Origin: Bdellovibrionia bacterium
GTDB lineage: Bacteria; Bdellovibrionota; Bdellovibrionia; Bdellovibrionales; JAGQZY01
Reading direction: 5' to 3'
NCBI GenBank assembly: GCA_030424715.1
Contig: JAUHWH010000006.1
Location: 62,001 to 126,000 of the forward strand
DNA length: 64,000 nt
This document shows positions 11,850 through 41,256 of the stretch, piece after piece. Below the pieces are notes generated by a model that had not been told where the DNA came from, did not search any database, and was given only the letters and a program-made list of their open reading frames with translations. Position 1 is the first letter of the stretch; each line of letters starts with the position of its first letter. The translations under genes were made by a program, and so were the position numbers.

Positions 11850-14800
11850 TTAAAGTTTGTGGGACTTCCAGATGGCTATGTTGTTGGCATCCAAAACCAC
11901 CAGTTGACCATCTTTACGAAAAACCAAAGCTTTGCCTCTGTTGTAGGTGTTGCTAGCGAACAGGGGTTTGCGAGCTTCGTCGTAAATCACCAAGTTACCA
12001 TCTGATTGAAAATACAAACGGTGTCCACGGTTTTCGGTCTGGGTGCCGAAGCGGAGTCGGCTTTGCTCATCGCGGATCACAAGGTTGCCGTTGGTTTCAA
12101 AAACCAACTGTTGCTTGTCCTGCGAGTGAACCTCGCCCTTGGTGAATTCATAACCCAAGGGAAACAATTGCCCTTGTTCAGCCGGTGGCACGGCCGAGTC
12201 GGGTGTTTTTAAGGTGACCGGTGGCCACTGACTGGAGACGGCTTGAGAGCCATCTGGTTTGGTTGGATTAAAATGACCCTTTCCAAAAACTCTTCGTCCA
12301 GAAACCACAAGTCCATTGTCGTTGAGAACGAGTTGTTCGGCTTCATCCAAGCCACGACCTTTCCAAATTCGTTTTCCATCTAAATGATAAGCAGCGAATG
12401 AGTTTCTTCCAGTCTTTTTCACTTTGTAGCGTCCCGCTTGAAAAACACTGCCTTCACGAATCGCTCCGGGCTGGTCACGAACGAGAGTCCGACTTAAAAT
12501 ATTTTCATCAATCATAAGGCCAGCGAGGTCAGTCAAGACAAGAGGGGATGTCGTCTTTGTGTTGGACGCGTAAACGGGATTGTCCTTTTTGTCGTAGACC
12601 ACGAGATTGCCATCGTCTTGATAAAAAGCGCGGTCACCCAGTCCGCCACCAGAGCCGGTGCTCCATATTACTCCACGGCCTTTTTCATGCAGCACCAGGT
12701 TTCCATCTTTCTGAAACACCAGTTGGTATTTTGTGGTGGCGTAGGTCTCTCCTCTGATAAAGGGAGTGCCTCGAGGGATAACAATTTTTGTGTTCTCAAA
12801 GGGAGTGAAAGACTCAAAGTCGCCTTTTGGCCAAAGATTTTTCACCAAGCTGAGGTAGGCCATCAAAGTTTCTGGCGTGATGGACGGCACATTGTGGAAA
12901 AACTGCGCCATATTATAGGCGTTGTTAGCATTATCGTTGTGCCAAACCTGACCGTTCACGAACTCTCCCGGAGTGGCGTCGCGACTGATAATGTTGGTCC
13001 AGATATCCATAAGGGGATCGTCGAAGTTTGTGAAGCGATGGGAGTCCCACCTCATAATCCCATAGCGATCTCTCATGATTTCTATGTAGTTTAGTAAGAA
13101 AGCCTCCATAAAGGAGTTACGAGTTTCCACATCGGTCATTTCAGTGAGAGTTTCTCGCAACATCCAGTGGGGTTTCGTGAAGCGGATCATAAATCCGTCG
13201 CGACCAATCCCAAACGGACCGGTGTTGTTTTGCATGCCCTTGATTAAAGTAAGCATATGCAAGTAGGGCGTTTTAACTTTTGAACTTCGATACAGGCGAT
13301 TGATAAAATTGTACTGGTAGTCCCAATCCACCGGATAGATGCCGTCACGGACTTTACCTCCGGAGTTAAGAACGATTTGGGCGTGGTACCAAGCCACAGA
13401 ATCGTACTCGCCCTTGAGAACGGACTGAGACAGATCGTCACTTGTAAAATGAAGGCGATTCAAACTGTAGATGTGAGGAGCGACTTGAAATACGCTAAAT
13501 TTTCGAACCGGCCACTGACGATCTTCAGCGAGGTCCGCTCCGTAGATTTTTTTTGCTTTGTCCGCAATCTGCAGACGTTGCATCACATCGAAGGTGCGAA
13601 CGGCAATGGTTTTGGCCATGGCATTGTTGGCCAACTCTTGGGAGATCCTGGGTGAGCGACGATCGGTGATGGTGCCCTCTTTAATCCGCAGAGGGTAGTC
13701 ATGCACTCGTGCACCTTTGCCCATGAAGTCATAAGCGTCTTTGGTGAGTCGCTCGAGAAGAAAGCCGGCACTGTTCTCTTTTTTGTAGCCATAACGTCCT
13801 TGGCGCAGGGCCTCACGCAGTTGTTTTTCGACAGCGAAAAAACCTTTGCGATTGCCTTCCATTCCTTTGACGTAGTAGTCACCCCAGACATCGACAGGGT
13901 GAATCGTGGGCAGCCAGTCGTTCCAGTCGGGGAGCTGGATAGATACCGGGATCTCTCGTGTATTGATTTGTTGAATATCAGTGGTTCCATTTTTTAAGAT
14001 ATCTGAGATTGCTGAGGTCGATGTGCCTTCAGGAAACAGAAAGTCTTTGGTATCGGCATCAGTTGGAACCACGGCGTTGAGGCCGGCACCGGCGGCCCAC
14101 TCTTGCACCGGGCGACTGTCGATGCCGGGGCCAGGCTGATAAGGTGGGTTCCAGGGGCGCCCCACCCGCGGAACGCCCTTGGCGTTGAGAGAGCGGATGT
14201 AAGAGGCGATCGCTTGCCCCTGTTTAAAAGACAGGCCATGAAACAAAGAGCGTGCGACGATGGACCCATTGGAGTAGGCAAAGTACTCAAGGTCACGACC
14301 GTCTTGCGAGTGGCAGTCATTGCACGAAGCACGAATAGAGCGACCACCGTCGATAAGAATGTTCCGTTTTGAAAACAGACCTTTACCGAATTCTACACTG
14401 TCAGAATCCGTTAGTGGTGGCTGCCATTGATTGGGGTCTTCGGTAGTCACGGGATTGGCAATCAAATTGTTTTGGCTCCGGTCAAATATTTGAAGATCAA
14501 GAATACGAAAACCATTGGTCACGCCGTCGGTTTGACCCATTCGAAAGGAAACAAAGTTCATCCCTTTCTTAATGACTTGCGGCCCACCCAATTTCGCGAG
14601 ATCAATCGTTAGATGGTTGGTGCGAAAGCCGCCGCCAATCCCGCCGTAATTTTTTTCTTTCGCGGGTAACGTCACGTTGTCATTACTGAGTGGTAACCAA
14701 GGGCCATCATTGAGGCGAACAAAAGCTTTGCCATCTTTTTTCGAAGAAGGATGATGATCGGTGTATCCCAGGCGATGCCCCTGTAAAAAGAGCGATCGGG

Positions 14801-15065
14801 CAAGAGCCGGGTCGTTGACCACAAATGAGCGCTTGGCGTGGACCTGCGATGAGGGTTCAAGGTGTTGAGGGTATGGAGTGGTAGCGGTGCTGTAGATTTG
14901 TTGGTATTGGTCTGCTGAGAGATCGGGATAAACTTCGATGGGAAAGACAAGAGGAGGCATTTCGCTTTTGTCGTAAGCCCAGGTTAGAGAGTAGAAACTG
15001 CCTGGCAGGAGAAAAGCCAAGAGCAATAAAGGAGTGAAAAACCTATTTTGTTGTTGTGATTTCAA
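11850..15065 (-). CDS. Large secreted cytochrome c / bulb-lectin fusion protein
   Basis: 1071 residues with a signal peptide (LLLLAFLLPGSFYSLTWA). One heme c motif, CNDCH, is at residues 248-252, in the context SCNDCHSQDGRDLEYF; the helix FKQGQAIASYIRSLN follows, as in class I cytochromes. The middle 300-760 region is not recognised. Residues from about 765 to the end hold several bulb-type mannose-binding lectin (B_lectin) repeats: YQLVFQKDGNLVLHEKG, FYQDDGNLVVYDKKDNPVY, LVFETNGNLVIRDEQSRL and LYFQSDGNLVIYDEARKPLF. QxDxNLVxY is the lectin signature. The inference is an exported or surface redox protein that binds glycans. It converges on the peroxiredoxin-like gene, with stops four bases apart. 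Confidence 0.85.
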   Translation of the reverse strand: MKSQQQNRFFTPLLLLAFLLPGSFYSLTWAYDKSEMPPLVFPIEVYPDLSADQYQQIYSTATTPYPQHLEPSSQVHAKRSFVVNDPALARSLFLQGHRLGYTDHHPSSKKDGKAFVRLNDGPWLPLSNDNVTLPAKEKNYGGIGGGFRTNHLTIDLAKLGGPQVIKKGMNFVSFRMGQTDGVTNGFRILDLQIFDRSQNNLIANPVTTEDPNQWQPPLTDSDSVEFGKGLFSKRNILIDGGRSIRASCNDCHSQDGRDLEYFAYSNGSIVARSLFHGLSFKQGQAIASYIRSLNAKGVPRVGRPWNPPYQPGPGIDSRPVQEWAAGAGLNAVVPTDADTKDFLFPEGTSTSAISDILKNGTTDIQQINTREIPVSIQLPDWNDWLPTIHPVDVWGDYYVKGMEGNRKGFFAVEKQLREALRQGRYGYKKENSAGFLLERLTKDAYDFMGKGARVHDYPLRIKEGTITDRRSPRISQELANNAMAKTIAVRTFDVMQRLQIADKAKKIYGADLAEDRQWPVRKFSVFQVAPHIYSLNRLHFTSDDLSQSVLKGEYDSVAWYHAQIVLNSGGKVRDGIYPVDWDYQYNFINRLYRSSKVKTPYLHMLTLIKGMQNNTGPFGIGRDGFMIRFTKPHWMLRETLTEMTDVETRNSFMEAFLLNYIEIMRDRYGIMRWDSHRFTNFDDPLMDIWTNIISRDATPGEFVNGQVWHNDNANNAYNMAQFFHNVPSITPETLMAYLSLVKNLWPKGDFESFTPFENTKIVIPRGTPFIRGETYATTKYQLVFQKDGNLVLHEKGRGVIWSTGSGGGLGDRAFYQDDGNLVVYDKKDNPVYASNTKTTSPLVLTDLAGLMIDENILSRTLVRDQPGAIREGSVFQAGRYKVKKTGRNSFAAYHLDGKRIWKGRGLDEAEQLVLNDNGLVVSGRRVFGKGHFNPTKPDGSQAVSSQWPPVTLKTPDSAVPPAEQGQLFPLGYEFTKGEVHSQDKQQLVFETNGNLVIRDEQSRLRFGTQTENRGHRLYFQSDGNLVIYDEARKPLFASNTYNRGKALVFRKDGQLVVLDANNIAIWKSHKL

Positions 15066-16056: not shown

Positions 16057-17115
16057 TTACAGCGTACGAACGCAGGTCACCCGGGTGTGCACAAAGCCAC
16101 CACTAAAATCACCCCCAGGTCCGGTGGGGGCGGGGCGTCCCATGTCAAAAGAGTTCTGACTCTGACCGCAGAAATGCATAACAGAAATATTGGTGTCGGC
16201 GGCAAGGGTTAAATCGACCTTGCCCATGGTGAACTCAGAGTTGCCATTAGAGGAGAAGCCGGACCCTATGGGGGTGTCCGCTCCCCCCACGCGCAGAAAG
16301 ATGGCGTAGCCACGGACCGCTTGATAGGCTTGCGCAAAGACCTCGCATTCGTATTGGCCGGCCAGCAGTCGAAAGGTTGTCGCGTTGACGGAGGTGGCAT
16401 TGTCACCAACATCATAGGCCTCTGTGGGAATTTGTCGGGCGACCCGAGCTCCCGTCGTACAGTTGCCGCCCCCGGTGTTCGTGGTAACTCGGTGATGGTA
16501 CTCGAGGGGCTCGTAGCGAAGTTTCTGACTACGGTCCATCCAGAAATTATATTCCGTGGGATCCACTCGACTGACCATCGTGTCGGCTGTGGCCGGAGAT
16601 GAACGGAATGTCGCCTGAATGGTGATGTCGGGCTTGTAGCACTGAGCCTCGGCGCCCGGGCAGTTTAACGTCAAAGTAAGGTCGTAGCGAAAAGGACAGT
16701 CATCATTACCCGCGGCCGTGTAGCCATTGCAATCTTGTCCATTGTCGTCAAAACCGGCGGTGGCACTTGAGGCTTGATAAACCAGTGTGCCGTTGACCGG
16801 GTCAGTAACGATCGAATTATAGACATCGAAATTGTTGACCACAGCTCCATCGTTACACATCACCGAGTCGTCTTCGATAAGGCAGTTGAGAGCTGCGTTT
16901 CGGTTGATGGTTATCAGCCACGAGGTGTCTTTGCGGATGGCAGCTAAAAGGCGATTTTTAAAATTGATGATATTGCCCTTAATAAAATTGGTTTGGCTGA
17001 CCTTTATGGTGTTGGCCATCATTGAAGTCGATCCGATACCAACGGCGCCGATGATCGCGAGCACTACGACGATTTCCATTAACGAGAAGCCAGAATTTCG
17101 AGGTCTAATAGCCAT
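16057..17115 (-). CDS. Pilin-like protein with prepilin N-terminus (paralogue 3 of 3)
   Basis: 352 residues. SGFSLMEIVVVLAIIGAVG at residues 8-26 is a type IV prepilin processing site: cleavage after glycine 9, with glutamate at mature position 5. A GAGG lies ten bases upstream of the ATG. The C-terminal part is cysteine-rich and shares several blocks with the two genes upstream (CPFRYDL, YEPLEYHH, GGNCTTGARV, QYECEVFAQAY, then MGRPAPTG and ITCVRTL-like ends). It is the most diverged of the trio. At this size it may be a minor or pseudopilin-like subunit, or an adhesin tip. It is 12 bases from the next gene, so the cluster is an operon. Confidence 0.75.
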   Translation of the reverse strand: MAIRPRNSGFSLMEIVVVLAIIGAVGIGSTSMMANTIKVSQTNFIKGNIINFKNRLLAAIRKDTSWLITINRNAALNCLIEDDSVMCNDGAVVNNFDVYNSIVTDPVNGTLVYQASSATAGFDDNGQDCNGYTAAGNDDCPFRYDLTLTLNCPGAEAQCYKPDITIQATFRSSPATADTMVSRVDPTEYNFWMDRSQKLRYEPLEYHHRVTTNTGGGNCTTGARVARQIPTEAYDVGDNATSVNATTFRLLAGQYECEVFAQAYQAVRGYAIFLRVGGADTPIGSGFSSNGNSEFTMGKVDLTLAADTNISVMHFCGQSQNSFDMGRPAPTGPGGDFSGGFVHTRVTCVRTL

Positions 17116-17127
17116 TGCGATAAATCC

Positions 17128-18252
17128 TCAAGACGACCGCACGCAGGAGATGGAGGTTACGACGGTTTCATTTGTGTAGTCCGGCGCGGGTATCCCCATG
17201 TCAAATTCTGGTTGGGCAAAGACATCGAGACCGGGCCATGCCCCGGGGTCCGTCGATGACGGGATGAGAGAAATGTCACCGCAGTTGTGCTGCAACTGAA
17301 AAGTGGCGACATTGGAAAGGGTGAATGTGACGGAACCGGAGGAATAGATAGCATTTCGCCATCCAGAGTAGCCGCCTCCCGCACTGTAGTTAAGGCCATT
17401 GGTTATATCTCGAAGTCGTATACTAAATCCGGCATGGGGTTCGTAGGACTGCGCTACGATTTTACATTCGTAGTTGCCGGGTTGAACAGTGATTTGGTTG
17501 GCTGCTAGAGTCACATTGCCGGCAGGGTCGTAGGCTTCATTTGACAGGGGGCGTGTAACCCAGGCACCAGCAGTGCAAGGGCCCCCTTCGTGATTTGGTG
17601 GTGCACTGAGAGAATGTTGGATTTCGAAAGGCTCATAGAGCACCTTTTCACCTCGTTCGATGACGGTGGTAAACTCGTTGACATCGATGCGGTTGCGAGG
17701 ATCACTAGGGTCGGCAGGGTTAAAATTTAAAGTGACGGCCAAGCTGACCTGCGGCTTCACACAAGGCCCAACCCCGTTCGGGCATGTGGCTGTCCAGCGC
17801 ACTTCGAAGCGAAAGGGGCAGGCGTCACTACCACTACCGAGAGTGGGGTTGAAGGTGGCGCAGACGTTGCCGTTGGCATCGAATCCGGTACCGGGGAGGA
17901 CGAGGTTGTACCAAGCGGCTCCATCTCGATTGTGAATAACGAAGTTATTGGCGGAAGTTTGACCATCGTTGCAACCCGCGGCTGGGACAGGGGGCTCTCT
18001 AAGGCAAGACAGAACTCCTGAGTTGGCTGGCGCATCCACGGTGGCCTGCCAGGCGGTGTCGTTGCGAAGAACGGCCGTCATGGTTTCTTGTATTTGCAGA
18101 GCCGAAGCCTTGAGGTTGGCCTTGCGTTGGACGTTGAACATATTTTGCAATAGGCTGGCTGTGCCGAGACCGATAAGGCTCATGATCACCATGGAGATCA
18201 TGACTTCGATGAGCGACAATCCTTTAACACATTTCCTTTTGCTGTTTAGCAT
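17128..18252 (-). CDS. Pilin-like protein with prepilin N-terminus (paralogue 2 of 3)
   Basis: 374 residues starting at ATG with a GGGG immediately upstream. KGLSLIEVMISMVIMSLIG is a prepilin peptidase site with the conserved glutamate at mature position 5. The mature part aligns along its length with the gene at 18411-19472: SCLREPPVPAAGCNDGQT, NNFVIHNRDGAAWYNLVLPG, PFRFEVRWTATCPNGVGPC and NPADPSDPRNRIDV. The C-terminal cysteine end ISCVRSS is identical in both. That conservation over the whole extracellular part indicates recent duplication. Function is inferred as a minor pilin or pilus-like surface subunit; no pilus assembly genes lie in this window apart from pilA at 63 kb. Confidence 0.78.
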   Translation of the reverse strand: MLNSKRKCVKGLSLIEVMISMVIMSLIGLGTASLLQNMFNVQRKANLKASALQIQETMTAVLRNDTAWQATVDAPANSGVLSCLREPPVPAAGCNDGQTSANNFVIHNRDGAAWYNLVLPGTGFDANGNVCATFNPTLGSGSDACPFRFEVRWTATCPNGVGPCVKPQVSLAVTLNFNPADPSDPRNRIDVNEFTTVIERGEKVLYEPFEIQHSLSAPPNHEGGPCTAGAWVTRPLSNEAYDPAGNVTLAANQITVQPGNYECKIVAQSYEPHAGFSIRLRDITNGLNYSAGGGYSGWRNAIYSSGSVTFTLSNVATFQLQHNCGDISLIPSSTDPGAWPGLDVFAQPEFDMGIPAPDYTNETVVTSISCVRSS

Positions 18253-18410
18253 CTCATCCCCAAATTAAACTAAGATAGCTTTATTGTAGCAGTAAAAGCG
18301 CAGGCATCAAACCCAATCTGTCTCGTATTGAGAGGGTAAGGCCGGATTCCGAGGTTTTTCACCAAGAGGGCCGGACCAACCCGGTTAGGCCGATCGTTTT
18401 TTGTTTCTCG

Positions 18411-19472
18411 CTAAGAAGACCGGACACAAGAAATGGAAGTGAGCACGGTGTCGGTTGGGGCGGCTCGTCCCATACTGAAGCCTCCAGCTGAGCAGTTTGG
18501 ACTGAAATGTTGCAACTCAAAGACGGTGGGGTTGGCTCGGCGAAAGTTAACAGTCCCCATTGCATAGGTGGTGCTTTCGGCGTTGGCAAAACCCCCGCCC
18601 ACATAAAAGGCCGTGCTATTGGTGACGTCCCAAAGCCGGATGCTAAATCCACTAGTCGCTCGATAGCCTTGGGCCGAGATCTTACAGCGATAGGCCCCCG
18701 GCTGGACCGTAAAGCGGGTGCCCGCTAGCGTCACGTTGTTGGCCTGATCGTAAAGAATATTAGTCAACGGACGAGGATTGTTCCAGCTATTAGAAGCACA
18801 AGCCCCTCCTCCAGCTCCTCCTGAACGGACGTGTCGGATCTCAAAAGGCTCGAAGGTGAGACGTTCATTCCGAGGAAAGGTCAATGCATAGTCGGCAACA
18901 TTCAGTCGATTGCGGGGATCACTTGGGTCGCCCGGATTGTAGATAAGAGTCAAAGCTAAGGTGACCTGTGGCTTTTCACAGGGGCCGACCCCACCGGGGC
19001 AGAAGCCCGTCCATGCGACTTCGAAGCGGAAGGGGCAGGAATCATCGCCAGCGCCGAGAACAGCGCTAAAAGTATTGCAGACAGTTCCGTCGACAGCGAA
19101 CCCAGTGTTGGGCAAGATAGGGTTGTACCATGCTCCACCACGGCGATCGTGAATAACAAAGTTATTTCCAGTTTGTCCATTGTTGCATCCGGTGACTGGT
19201 ACAGGACTGTCACGTAAGCAACCTAGGATCGCCACATTAGCAGCATTATTCAGGGAGCCCGCCCAGCTTGCATCGTTTTTCAGAATGGTGACCAAGTTTT
19301 TTTGAATTTCCCAAACGGACAACTTGAGAGCGGCACTTCGTTGTACCGAGAACATATTCTTCATTAAACTAGCGGTGCCCAGGCCGATCAAGGTCATGAC
19401 CGCCATTACAACCATCACTTCGATCAGTGACATTCCCATTTGATTGCTGGTTTGTCTTTTTATCAAGGACAC
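18411..19472 (-). CDS. Pilin-like protein with prepilin N-terminus (paralogue 1 of 3)
   Basis: 353 residues in the open frame, whose first codon is GTG; a TTG two codons later has GGGAG five bases upstream and may be the true start. QMGMSLIEVMVVMAVMTLIG is the prepilin cleavage site and hydrophobic helix. The mature part carries the shared cluster CLRDSPVPVTGCNNGQT, PFRFEVAWTGFCPGGVGPC, NPGDPSDPRNRLNV, YRCKISAQGY and ISCVRSS. About 160 bases separate it from the second paralogue. Cell location is inferred as pilus or outer surface. Confidence 0.78.
   Translation of the reverse strand: MSLIKRQTSNQMGMSLIEVMVVMAVMTLIGLGTASLMKNMFSVQRSAALKLSVWEIQKNLVTILKNDASWAGSLNNAANVAILGCLRDSPVPVTGCNNGQTGNNFVIHDRRGGAWYNPILPNTGFAVDGTVCNTFSAVLGAGDDSCPFRFEVAWTGFCPGGVGPCEKPQVTLALTLIYNPGDPSDPRNRLNVADYALTFPRNERLTFEPFEIRHVRSGGAGGGACASNSWNNPRPLTNILYDQANNVTLAGTRFTVQPGAYRCKISAQGYRATSGFSIRLWDVTNSTAFYVGGGFANAESTTYAMGTVNFRRANPTVFELQHFSPNCSAGGFSMGRAAPTDTVLTSISCVRSS

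Positions 19473-35664: not shown

Positions 35665-41256
<5,592 letters not shown>

What the first reader, a model, noticed from the sequence alone, without database searches (positions are those of the whole stretch)
11850..15065. Exported cytochrome c fused to several bulb-type lectin repeats
One heme motif CNDCH at residue 248 and at least four QxDGNLVxYD-type lectin repeats after residue 765 sit in one 1071-residue signal-peptide protein. Linking redox chemistry to glycan binding is unusual. The middle 450 residues are unrecognised and could be a new catalytic domain.
Basis: partly seen in the sequence, partly recalled or inferred. Interest (0 to 1): 0.6.

Follow-up and report, generated by a model that had tools for sequence, protein, structure and literature searches.

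The report
Sugar-targeted heme protein of undescribed family
A secreted bacterial protein joins one predicted covalent heme to sugar-binding domains; its heme-bearing core belongs to an unnamed, patchily spread family that several lineages of environmental phages also carry, which suggests an undescribed kind of redox protein aimed at polysaccharides.

Summary
The 1071-aa ORF is on the minus strand, starts at TTG and has a signal peptide. Its only two cysteines form CNDCH (residue 248). B_lectin is over Pfam's cut-off; best match pyocin L1. Only two strict QxDxNxVxY sites exist; three more are degenerate. One other Bdellovibrionota genome has the same fusion (54% identity).

The middle region is not a separate domain. 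It belongs to a ~700-aa core (CBM-like sandwich, CxxCH part, PWNPPYQPGPG motif, helical region) with no Pfam, NCBIfam or PDB sequence match. The core occurs in Bacteroidota, betaproteobacteria, Bdellovibrionota and on nine IMG/VR phage contigs (seven lineages). CxxCH is kept in 24/24 copies covering it; all 16 N-termini checked look like export signals. Appendages differ by lineage (B_lectin, ricin-type, CBM_4_9, Big_7); neighbours include glycosyltransferases, a sugar dehydrogenase and a tailspike-like protein.

Most likely: an exported c-type heme redox protein anchored to polysaccharide. Whether it catalyses or only passes electrons is open: no distal Met is conserved, His276 is conserved in 22/24, and the helical fold was not resolved. 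New variant of a known kind.

The parts
11850..15065 (-). whole ORF, 1071 aa, TTG start at 15065
14976..15065 (-). signal peptide, residues 1-30
   Evidence: sequence and hydrophobicity
14451..14948 (-). N-terminal beta-sandwich, residues about 40-205, CBM-like
   Evidence: model and VIA-align Z 7-7.8 on the Polaromonas relative; strands also in the window model
14166..14402 (-). c-type heme part, residues about 222-300
   Evidence: alignment of 24 relatives
14310..14324 (-). CNDCH, residues 248-252
   Evidence: 24/24 conserved; only cysteines of the protein
14238..14240 (-). His276 (FHGL), candidate distal ligand or pocket residue
   Evidence: 22/24 His, 2/24 Arg
14124..14159 (-). RPWNPPYQPGPG signature, residues 303-314
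   Evidence: most positions 22-25 of 25
13890..13931 (-). PDWNDWLPTIHPVD stretch, residues 379-392
   Evidence: P379, W384, D392 25/25
12786..14168 (-). conserved, mainly helical region, residues 300-760; no known relative outside the family
12456..12785 (-). first bulb-type lectin domain, residues about 761-870; strict site at 816-824
11853..12173 (-). second bulb-type lectin domain, residues about 965-1071; strict site at 1020-1028

Best explanation
The gene encodes a secreted c-type heme redox protein anchored to polysaccharide. Sec exports it; the cell's c-type maturation machinery attaches one heme at CNDCH. The N-terminal CBM-like sandwich and the two C-terminal bulb lectins hold it on mannose- or rhamnose-type glycans (own envelope, biofilm matrix or another bacterium's LPS). 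The heme, with the conserved PWNPPYQPGPG loop and the helical region, oxidises the glycan or a bound partner. Shown: export signal, conserved heme motif, lectin domains, shared core, sugar-related appendages and contexts. Inferred: heme attachment, contact between loop and heme, glycan as substrate, catalysis rather than electron relay.
For: CxxCH in 24/24 diverse copies, including the seven phage copies that cover it, although most of their branches are 1-2.4 changes per site long; only two Cys in the window protein. Signal-like N-terminus in 16/16 core proteins, against one clear and one borderline of ten phage hallmark proteins. A c-type cytochrome assembly gene in the same genome. Sugar-linked appendages that differ by lineage: B_lectin, ricin-type lectin plus T9SS tail, CBM_4_9 and Big_7. 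N-terminal fold nearest to CBMs and the BcsB sugar-binding domain. Neighbours elsewhere: glycosyltransferase clusters, glucose/sorbosone dehydrogenase, ABC solute-binding protein and zinc dehydrogenase, tailspike-like protein with K1-lyase C-domain in a phage. No conserved distal Met, unlike a plain electron carrier.
Against: No enzyme or fold match for the helical region; both models are weak (pLDDT 53.5 and 63.2). H276 is Arg in two copies and H389 and H531 vary, so no catalytic residue set stands out beyond the heme and the Pro/aromatic loop. The window gene itself has no evident carbohydrate genes beside it. Pfam does not recognise a cytochrome in the window protein.
Confidence: 0.5

Rival explanations
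1. It is an electron-transfer hub, not an enzyme: the heme relays electrons between the cell or a sugar dehydrogenase and a separate oxidative enzyme on the same polysaccharide, as proposed for Cbp2D/Cbp2E of Cellvibrio japonicus.
For: One heme plus sugar-binding domains, the same general plan as Cbp2D/E and TERTU_2913/3803 (PMC10916295); a glucose/sorbosone dehydrogenase gene sits next to one copy.
Against: No conserved Met ligand; the ~400-aa conserved helical region and its near-invariant loop would need another purpose; no partner enzyme is evident beside the phage copies.
Confidence: 0.25
2. It is a glycan-binding adhesin or surface protein in which the heme is structural or serves storage or sensing; the core only binds.
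For: Several sugar-binding modules; Big_7 repeats in phage copies; lipoprotein-type N-termini in betaproteobacterial copies.
Against: The most conserved positions lie around CxxCH and PWNPPYQPGPG rather than in the sandwich.
Confidence: 0.15
3. It is an antibacterial or predation factor built like a lectin-like bacteriocin: the MMBL domains dock on another bacterium's LPS and the heme core does damage there.
For: Best lectin match is pyocin L1, which binds D-rhamnose LPS (PMC3916391); partial hits to NF033557 in both Bdellovibrionota copies.
Against: Far below the NF033557 cut-off (146 against 275 bits); the other lineages lack these lectins; only 2 of 141 genomes of the order carry the core, so it is no general predation gene.
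Confidence: 0.08

Closest known systems
Cbp2D/Cbp2E (Cellvibrio japonicus) and TERTU_2913/3803 (Teredinibacter turnerae): secreted redox proteins with CBMs and X183/X132 heme domains (PMC10916295)
   Same: Exported; CxxCH parts joined to sugar-binding modules in most of them; sugar-dehydrogenase-like domains or neighbours.
   Different: X183 is a small His/Met cytochrome; here no Met is conserved and a ~400-aa helical region follows. The Pfam DUF that marks X132 gave no hit. X132 sequences themselves were not at hand.
LlpA lectin-like bacteriocins (pyocin L1, putidacin L1; PMC3916391)
   Same: Tandem MMBL domains, QxDxNxVxY sites; best sequence and fold match of the C-terminal third.
   Different: Those are free-standing proteins of about 275 aa; here the lectins are an appendage of a 760-aa heme protein. 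NF033557 cut-off not reached.
Class I c-type cytochromes (Pfam Cytochrom_C, Cytochrome_CBB3)
   Same: CxxCH, helical surround, export, C-terminal helix.
   Different: Below Pfam cut-offs, no conserved distal Met, large extra region.

Membership tests
B_lectin / MMBL domain (PF01453) | sequence above the curated cut-off | tested here: met
   43.0 against 32.4 bits
B_lectin / MMBL domain (PF01453) | beta-prism fold of monocot lectins | tested here: met
   Foldseek to 1xd5/1xd6, TMt 0.79-0.82, rmsd 1.9-2.0, on a model of low overall confidence
B_lectin / MMBL domain (PF01453) | QxDxNxVxY sugar sites | tested here: met
   two strict (816, 1020), three degenerate
B_lectin / MMBL domain (PF01453) | binding of mannose/rhamnose glycans | not testable with these tools
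   needs glycan array or ITC
c-type cytochrome | CxxCH motif conserved across the family | tested here: met
   24/24
c-type cytochrome | export, with a maturation gene in the same genome | tested here: met
   signal peptide; Cytochrom_C_asm 107 bits
c-type cytochrome | class I cytochrome fold / Pfam model | tested here: inconclusive
   no hit in the window protein, sub-threshold in one relative; helices in the models
c-type cytochrome | conserved distal Met (typical electron carrier) | tested here: not met
   no Met between 252 and 300; none conserved in 24 rows
c-type cytochrome | covalently bound heme | not testable with these tools
   needs heme staining or mass spectrometry
putidacin L1 family lectin-like bacteriocin (NF033557) | score above the family cut-off | tested here: not met
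   146 against 275 bits
X183 redox domain of Cbp2D/E-type proteins | small cytochrome with His/Met heme | tested here: not met
   no conserved Met; definition from PMC10916295
X132 redox domain of Cbp2D/E-type proteins | N-terminal Pfam DUF named in PMC10916295 | tested here: not met
   no such hit in the window protein or its relatives
X132 redox domain of Cbp2D/E-type proteins | direct sequence similarity | not tested
   no X132 sequence at hand

The most novel reading that the evidence does not exclude
The core is a new class of heme enzyme that oxidatively attacks polysaccharides (in role a heme counterpart of LPMOs), joined to interchangeable lectins in bacteria and carried by phages near tail and tailspike genes to attack or remodel capsule or biofilm matrix.
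Probability: 0.15. Interest if true: 0.85.

Novelty: new variant of a known kind. Interest (0 to 1): 0.5.

Why it matters
Secreted heme proteins that work on polysaccharides are few and poorly understood. Here is a ~700-aa family, without a match in Pfam, NCBIfam or the sequences of solved structures, that has an invariant heme motif and interchangeable sugar-binding appendages. It is spread patchily over several phyla, and phages keep its heme site. If catalytic, it would add a heme chemistry to glycan breakdown and perhaps to phage attack on surface polysaccharide; if not, it is a new redox partner. Either outcome can be tested with one purified protein.

Tried and rejected
(2) Pfam, NCBIfam and PDB sequence searches for the middle region and the core profile: no hit. 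(3) AlphaFold2 of the mature window protein: mean pLDDT 53.5, useful for the lectins and secondary structure only. A second model, on the Polaromonas core, gave pLDDT 63.2 and pTM 0.67. Foldseek against PDB and viral libraries gave no hit under E 0.001; VIA-align reported essentially only the N-terminal sandwich. So the helical fold is untested, not 'new'. (4) The insertion in L020 and L003's neighbouring gene: no PDB hit; the C-terminal part of L017: only CBM_4_9. (5) INPHARED phage records: no match with three core queries, so the phage copies are known only from IMG/VR metagenomic contigs. (6) Papers: no description of a cytochrome-bulb-lectin fusion or of this core found in the held library. 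(7) Chance CxxCH: rejected by conservation and by shuffles. (8) Mis-binned bacterial DNA as the source of the 'phage' copies: unlikely for six contigs with terminase, portal or tape-measure genes; weaker for L075 and L077, where only a DNA polymerase and a DnaB helicase were identified; L019 was not checked.

Full report
WHAT IS THERE. The ORF at 11850-15065 is on the minus strand and codes for 1071 residues from a TTG start that follows a run of G. It begins with a signal peptide, has exactly two cysteines, both in CNDCH (248-252), and ends in bulb-type lectin sequence. Shuffles of the protein give any CxxCH in 3 of 20,000 trials. B_lectin scores 43.0 bits against Pfam's cut-off of 32.4; the nearest solved relatives are pyocin L1, putidacin L1 and monocot lectins, and the predicted lectin domains superpose on monocot lectins with TMt about 0.8 and rmsd 2.0.

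THE UNIT IS A ~700-RESIDUE CORE. Residues about 40-760 are conserved as one piece. Relatives were found in an Aquimarina genome (two copies), Polaromonas, another betaproteobacterium (two copies), a Caballeronia plasmid of 2 Mb, further genomes sampled from the phyla of the Aquimarina and Polaromonas genomes (6 more of 296 and 2 more of 299), and one other Bdellovibrionota genome. The core has an N-terminal beta-sandwich, the CxxCH part ending in 'GxxIASYIRSL', the signature RPWNPPYQPGPG, the stretch PDWNxWLPxxHPxD and a long, mainly helical region. None of it matches Pfam or NCBIfam above cut-off, nor any PDB sequence. CxxCH is present in 24 of the 24 rows that cover it; P304, W305, Y309, Q310, P311 and P313 in 25 of 25.

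THE FUSION WITH LECTINS IS REAL BUT LOCAL. The other Bdellovibrionota copy (54% identity over residues 74-910) carries B_lectin-like sequence in the same open frame behind the core, with more lectin sequence in the next ORFs, out of frame, of that draft genome. Elsewhere the appendages differ: ricin-type lectin plus a T9SS tail in Aquimarina, T9SS tails in tandem copies of other genomes of that phylum, lipoprotein-type N-termini in betaproteobacterial copies, Big_7 repeats and CBM_4_9 in phage copies. Within the window's order only 2 of 141 genomes have the core; such patchiness suggests transfer or frequent loss, which I did not separate.

PHAGE COPIES. Scans of IMG/VR found the core on nine contigs; two of them (L017, L020) are 79% identical in the core and L019 is close to L020, so I count seven lineages. 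Eight contigs were examined: six have terminase, portal or tape-measure genes; two (L075, L077) showed only a DNA polymerase or a DnaB helicase, which is weaker. In the tree the phage rows have long branches and the deep forks are mostly unresolved. The seven phage copies that cover the site keep CxxCH, and all seven with a visible start begin with a signal-like stretch, as do the nine bacterial copies tested; of ten phage hallmark proteins one passed and one came near the same hydrophobicity. A phage protein that would need a periplasmic heme-attachment step and has an export signal is a coherent reading. In L017 the gene lies beside a tailspike-like protein with a K1-lyase C-terminal domain, and L020 has a similar neighbour. 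Phage-borne c-type cytochromes have precedents: soxD, which to my knowledge encodes a c-type cytochrome, is among reported phage auxiliary genes (PMC8190135), and a putative multiheme-like protein is reported in a microvirus (PMC10190252). I found no report of this family or of such a gene in a tail locus, in a library that lacks most subscription journals.

STRUCTURE. The full mature protein gave mean pLDDT 53.5. The Polaromonas core gave 63.2 and pTM 0.67, with the sandwich and heme part mostly at 70-94 and the helical region mostly at 35-80. The sandwich aligns with CBM35, CBM36, CBM6 and the sugar-binding domain of BcsB at Z 7-7.8, just below the level at which the tool calls a match secure. 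The helical region has no match, but it was not modelled well enough to call it new.

HEME SITE. No Met lies between CxxCH and residue 300 in the window protein, and none is conserved in the family. His276 (FHGL) is kept in 22 of 24; two tandem-locus copies have Arg. Either H276 is a distal ligand that those two have lost, or it is a distal-pocket residue of a heme with an open site. The latter would fit catalysis, the former a relay. The genome has a c-type cytochrome assembly gene.

CONTEXT. Neighbours of the core elsewhere point to sugars: group 1 glycosyltransferases around tandem copies, glucose/sorbosone dehydrogenase, and an ABC solute-binding protein with a zinc-type dehydrogenase. The window's own gene has no evident neighbour of that kind.

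MECHANISM. Shown: export signal, heme motif, lectins, conserved core, sugar-related appendages and contexts. Inferred: heme attachment, glycan docking, redox action on the glycan or on a partner. I give 0.5 to a polysaccharide-anchored heme redox protein acting itself, 0.25 to an electron hub of the Cbp2D/E kind (PMC10916295), 0.15 to a binding-only protein and 0.08 to an antibacterial or predation factor like the lectin bacteriocins (PMC3916391).

VERDICT. The unusual thing is not only heme plus lectin in one protein but an unnamed heme-bearing core shared between unrelated bacteria and phages. It works, as far as can be judged, like the known secreted CBM-cytochrome proteins but fails the tests for membership in their named domains; hence 'new variant of a known kind', interest 0.5.

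Noticed in passing
L017, L018, L020, L074, L075, L076, L077 (IMG/VR contigs): Phage-encoded copies of the CxxCH core, all with signal-like N-termini, several near tail genes; heme motif kept in all of them.
   Followed up: partly
L058:16520-19723(-), L060:17527-19527(+), L062:1903-2685(-), L074:6756-7895(+): Other large proteins around the core gene on these phage contigs also begin with signal-peptide-like stretches (12 of 14 checked), which is odd for virion proteins.
   Followed up: partly
L020:6216-7283: A ~356-aa insertion splits the helical region of this phage copy; no Pfam or PDB sequence match.
   Followed up: partly
L048, L049, L050, L051: Tandem pairs of core genes, the first of each with a T9SS-type tail in those tested, inside glycosyltransferase clusters; in the first copies of L050 and L051 His276 is Arg.
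   Followed up: partly
L021 / record G376: The core gene is split over both ends of the 47,341-base contig with about 100 residues missing between the parts, so the record is probably a nearly closed circle.
   Followed up: no
window 35665-41256 (-): 1863-aa exported protein with long collagen-like GATGPT repeats and an end that resembles the chaperone of endosialidase ([12 protein letters not shown]...); by eye only.
   Followed up: no
window 16057-19472 (-): Three paralogous proteins in a row with prepilin-like N-termini and a shared C-terminal part; by eye only.
   Followed up: no
L076:41-1226 (-): Genes made of repeated 'W(Y/F)xNGxLHREDGPAV' units on a contig with a phage-type terminase.
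   Followed up: no
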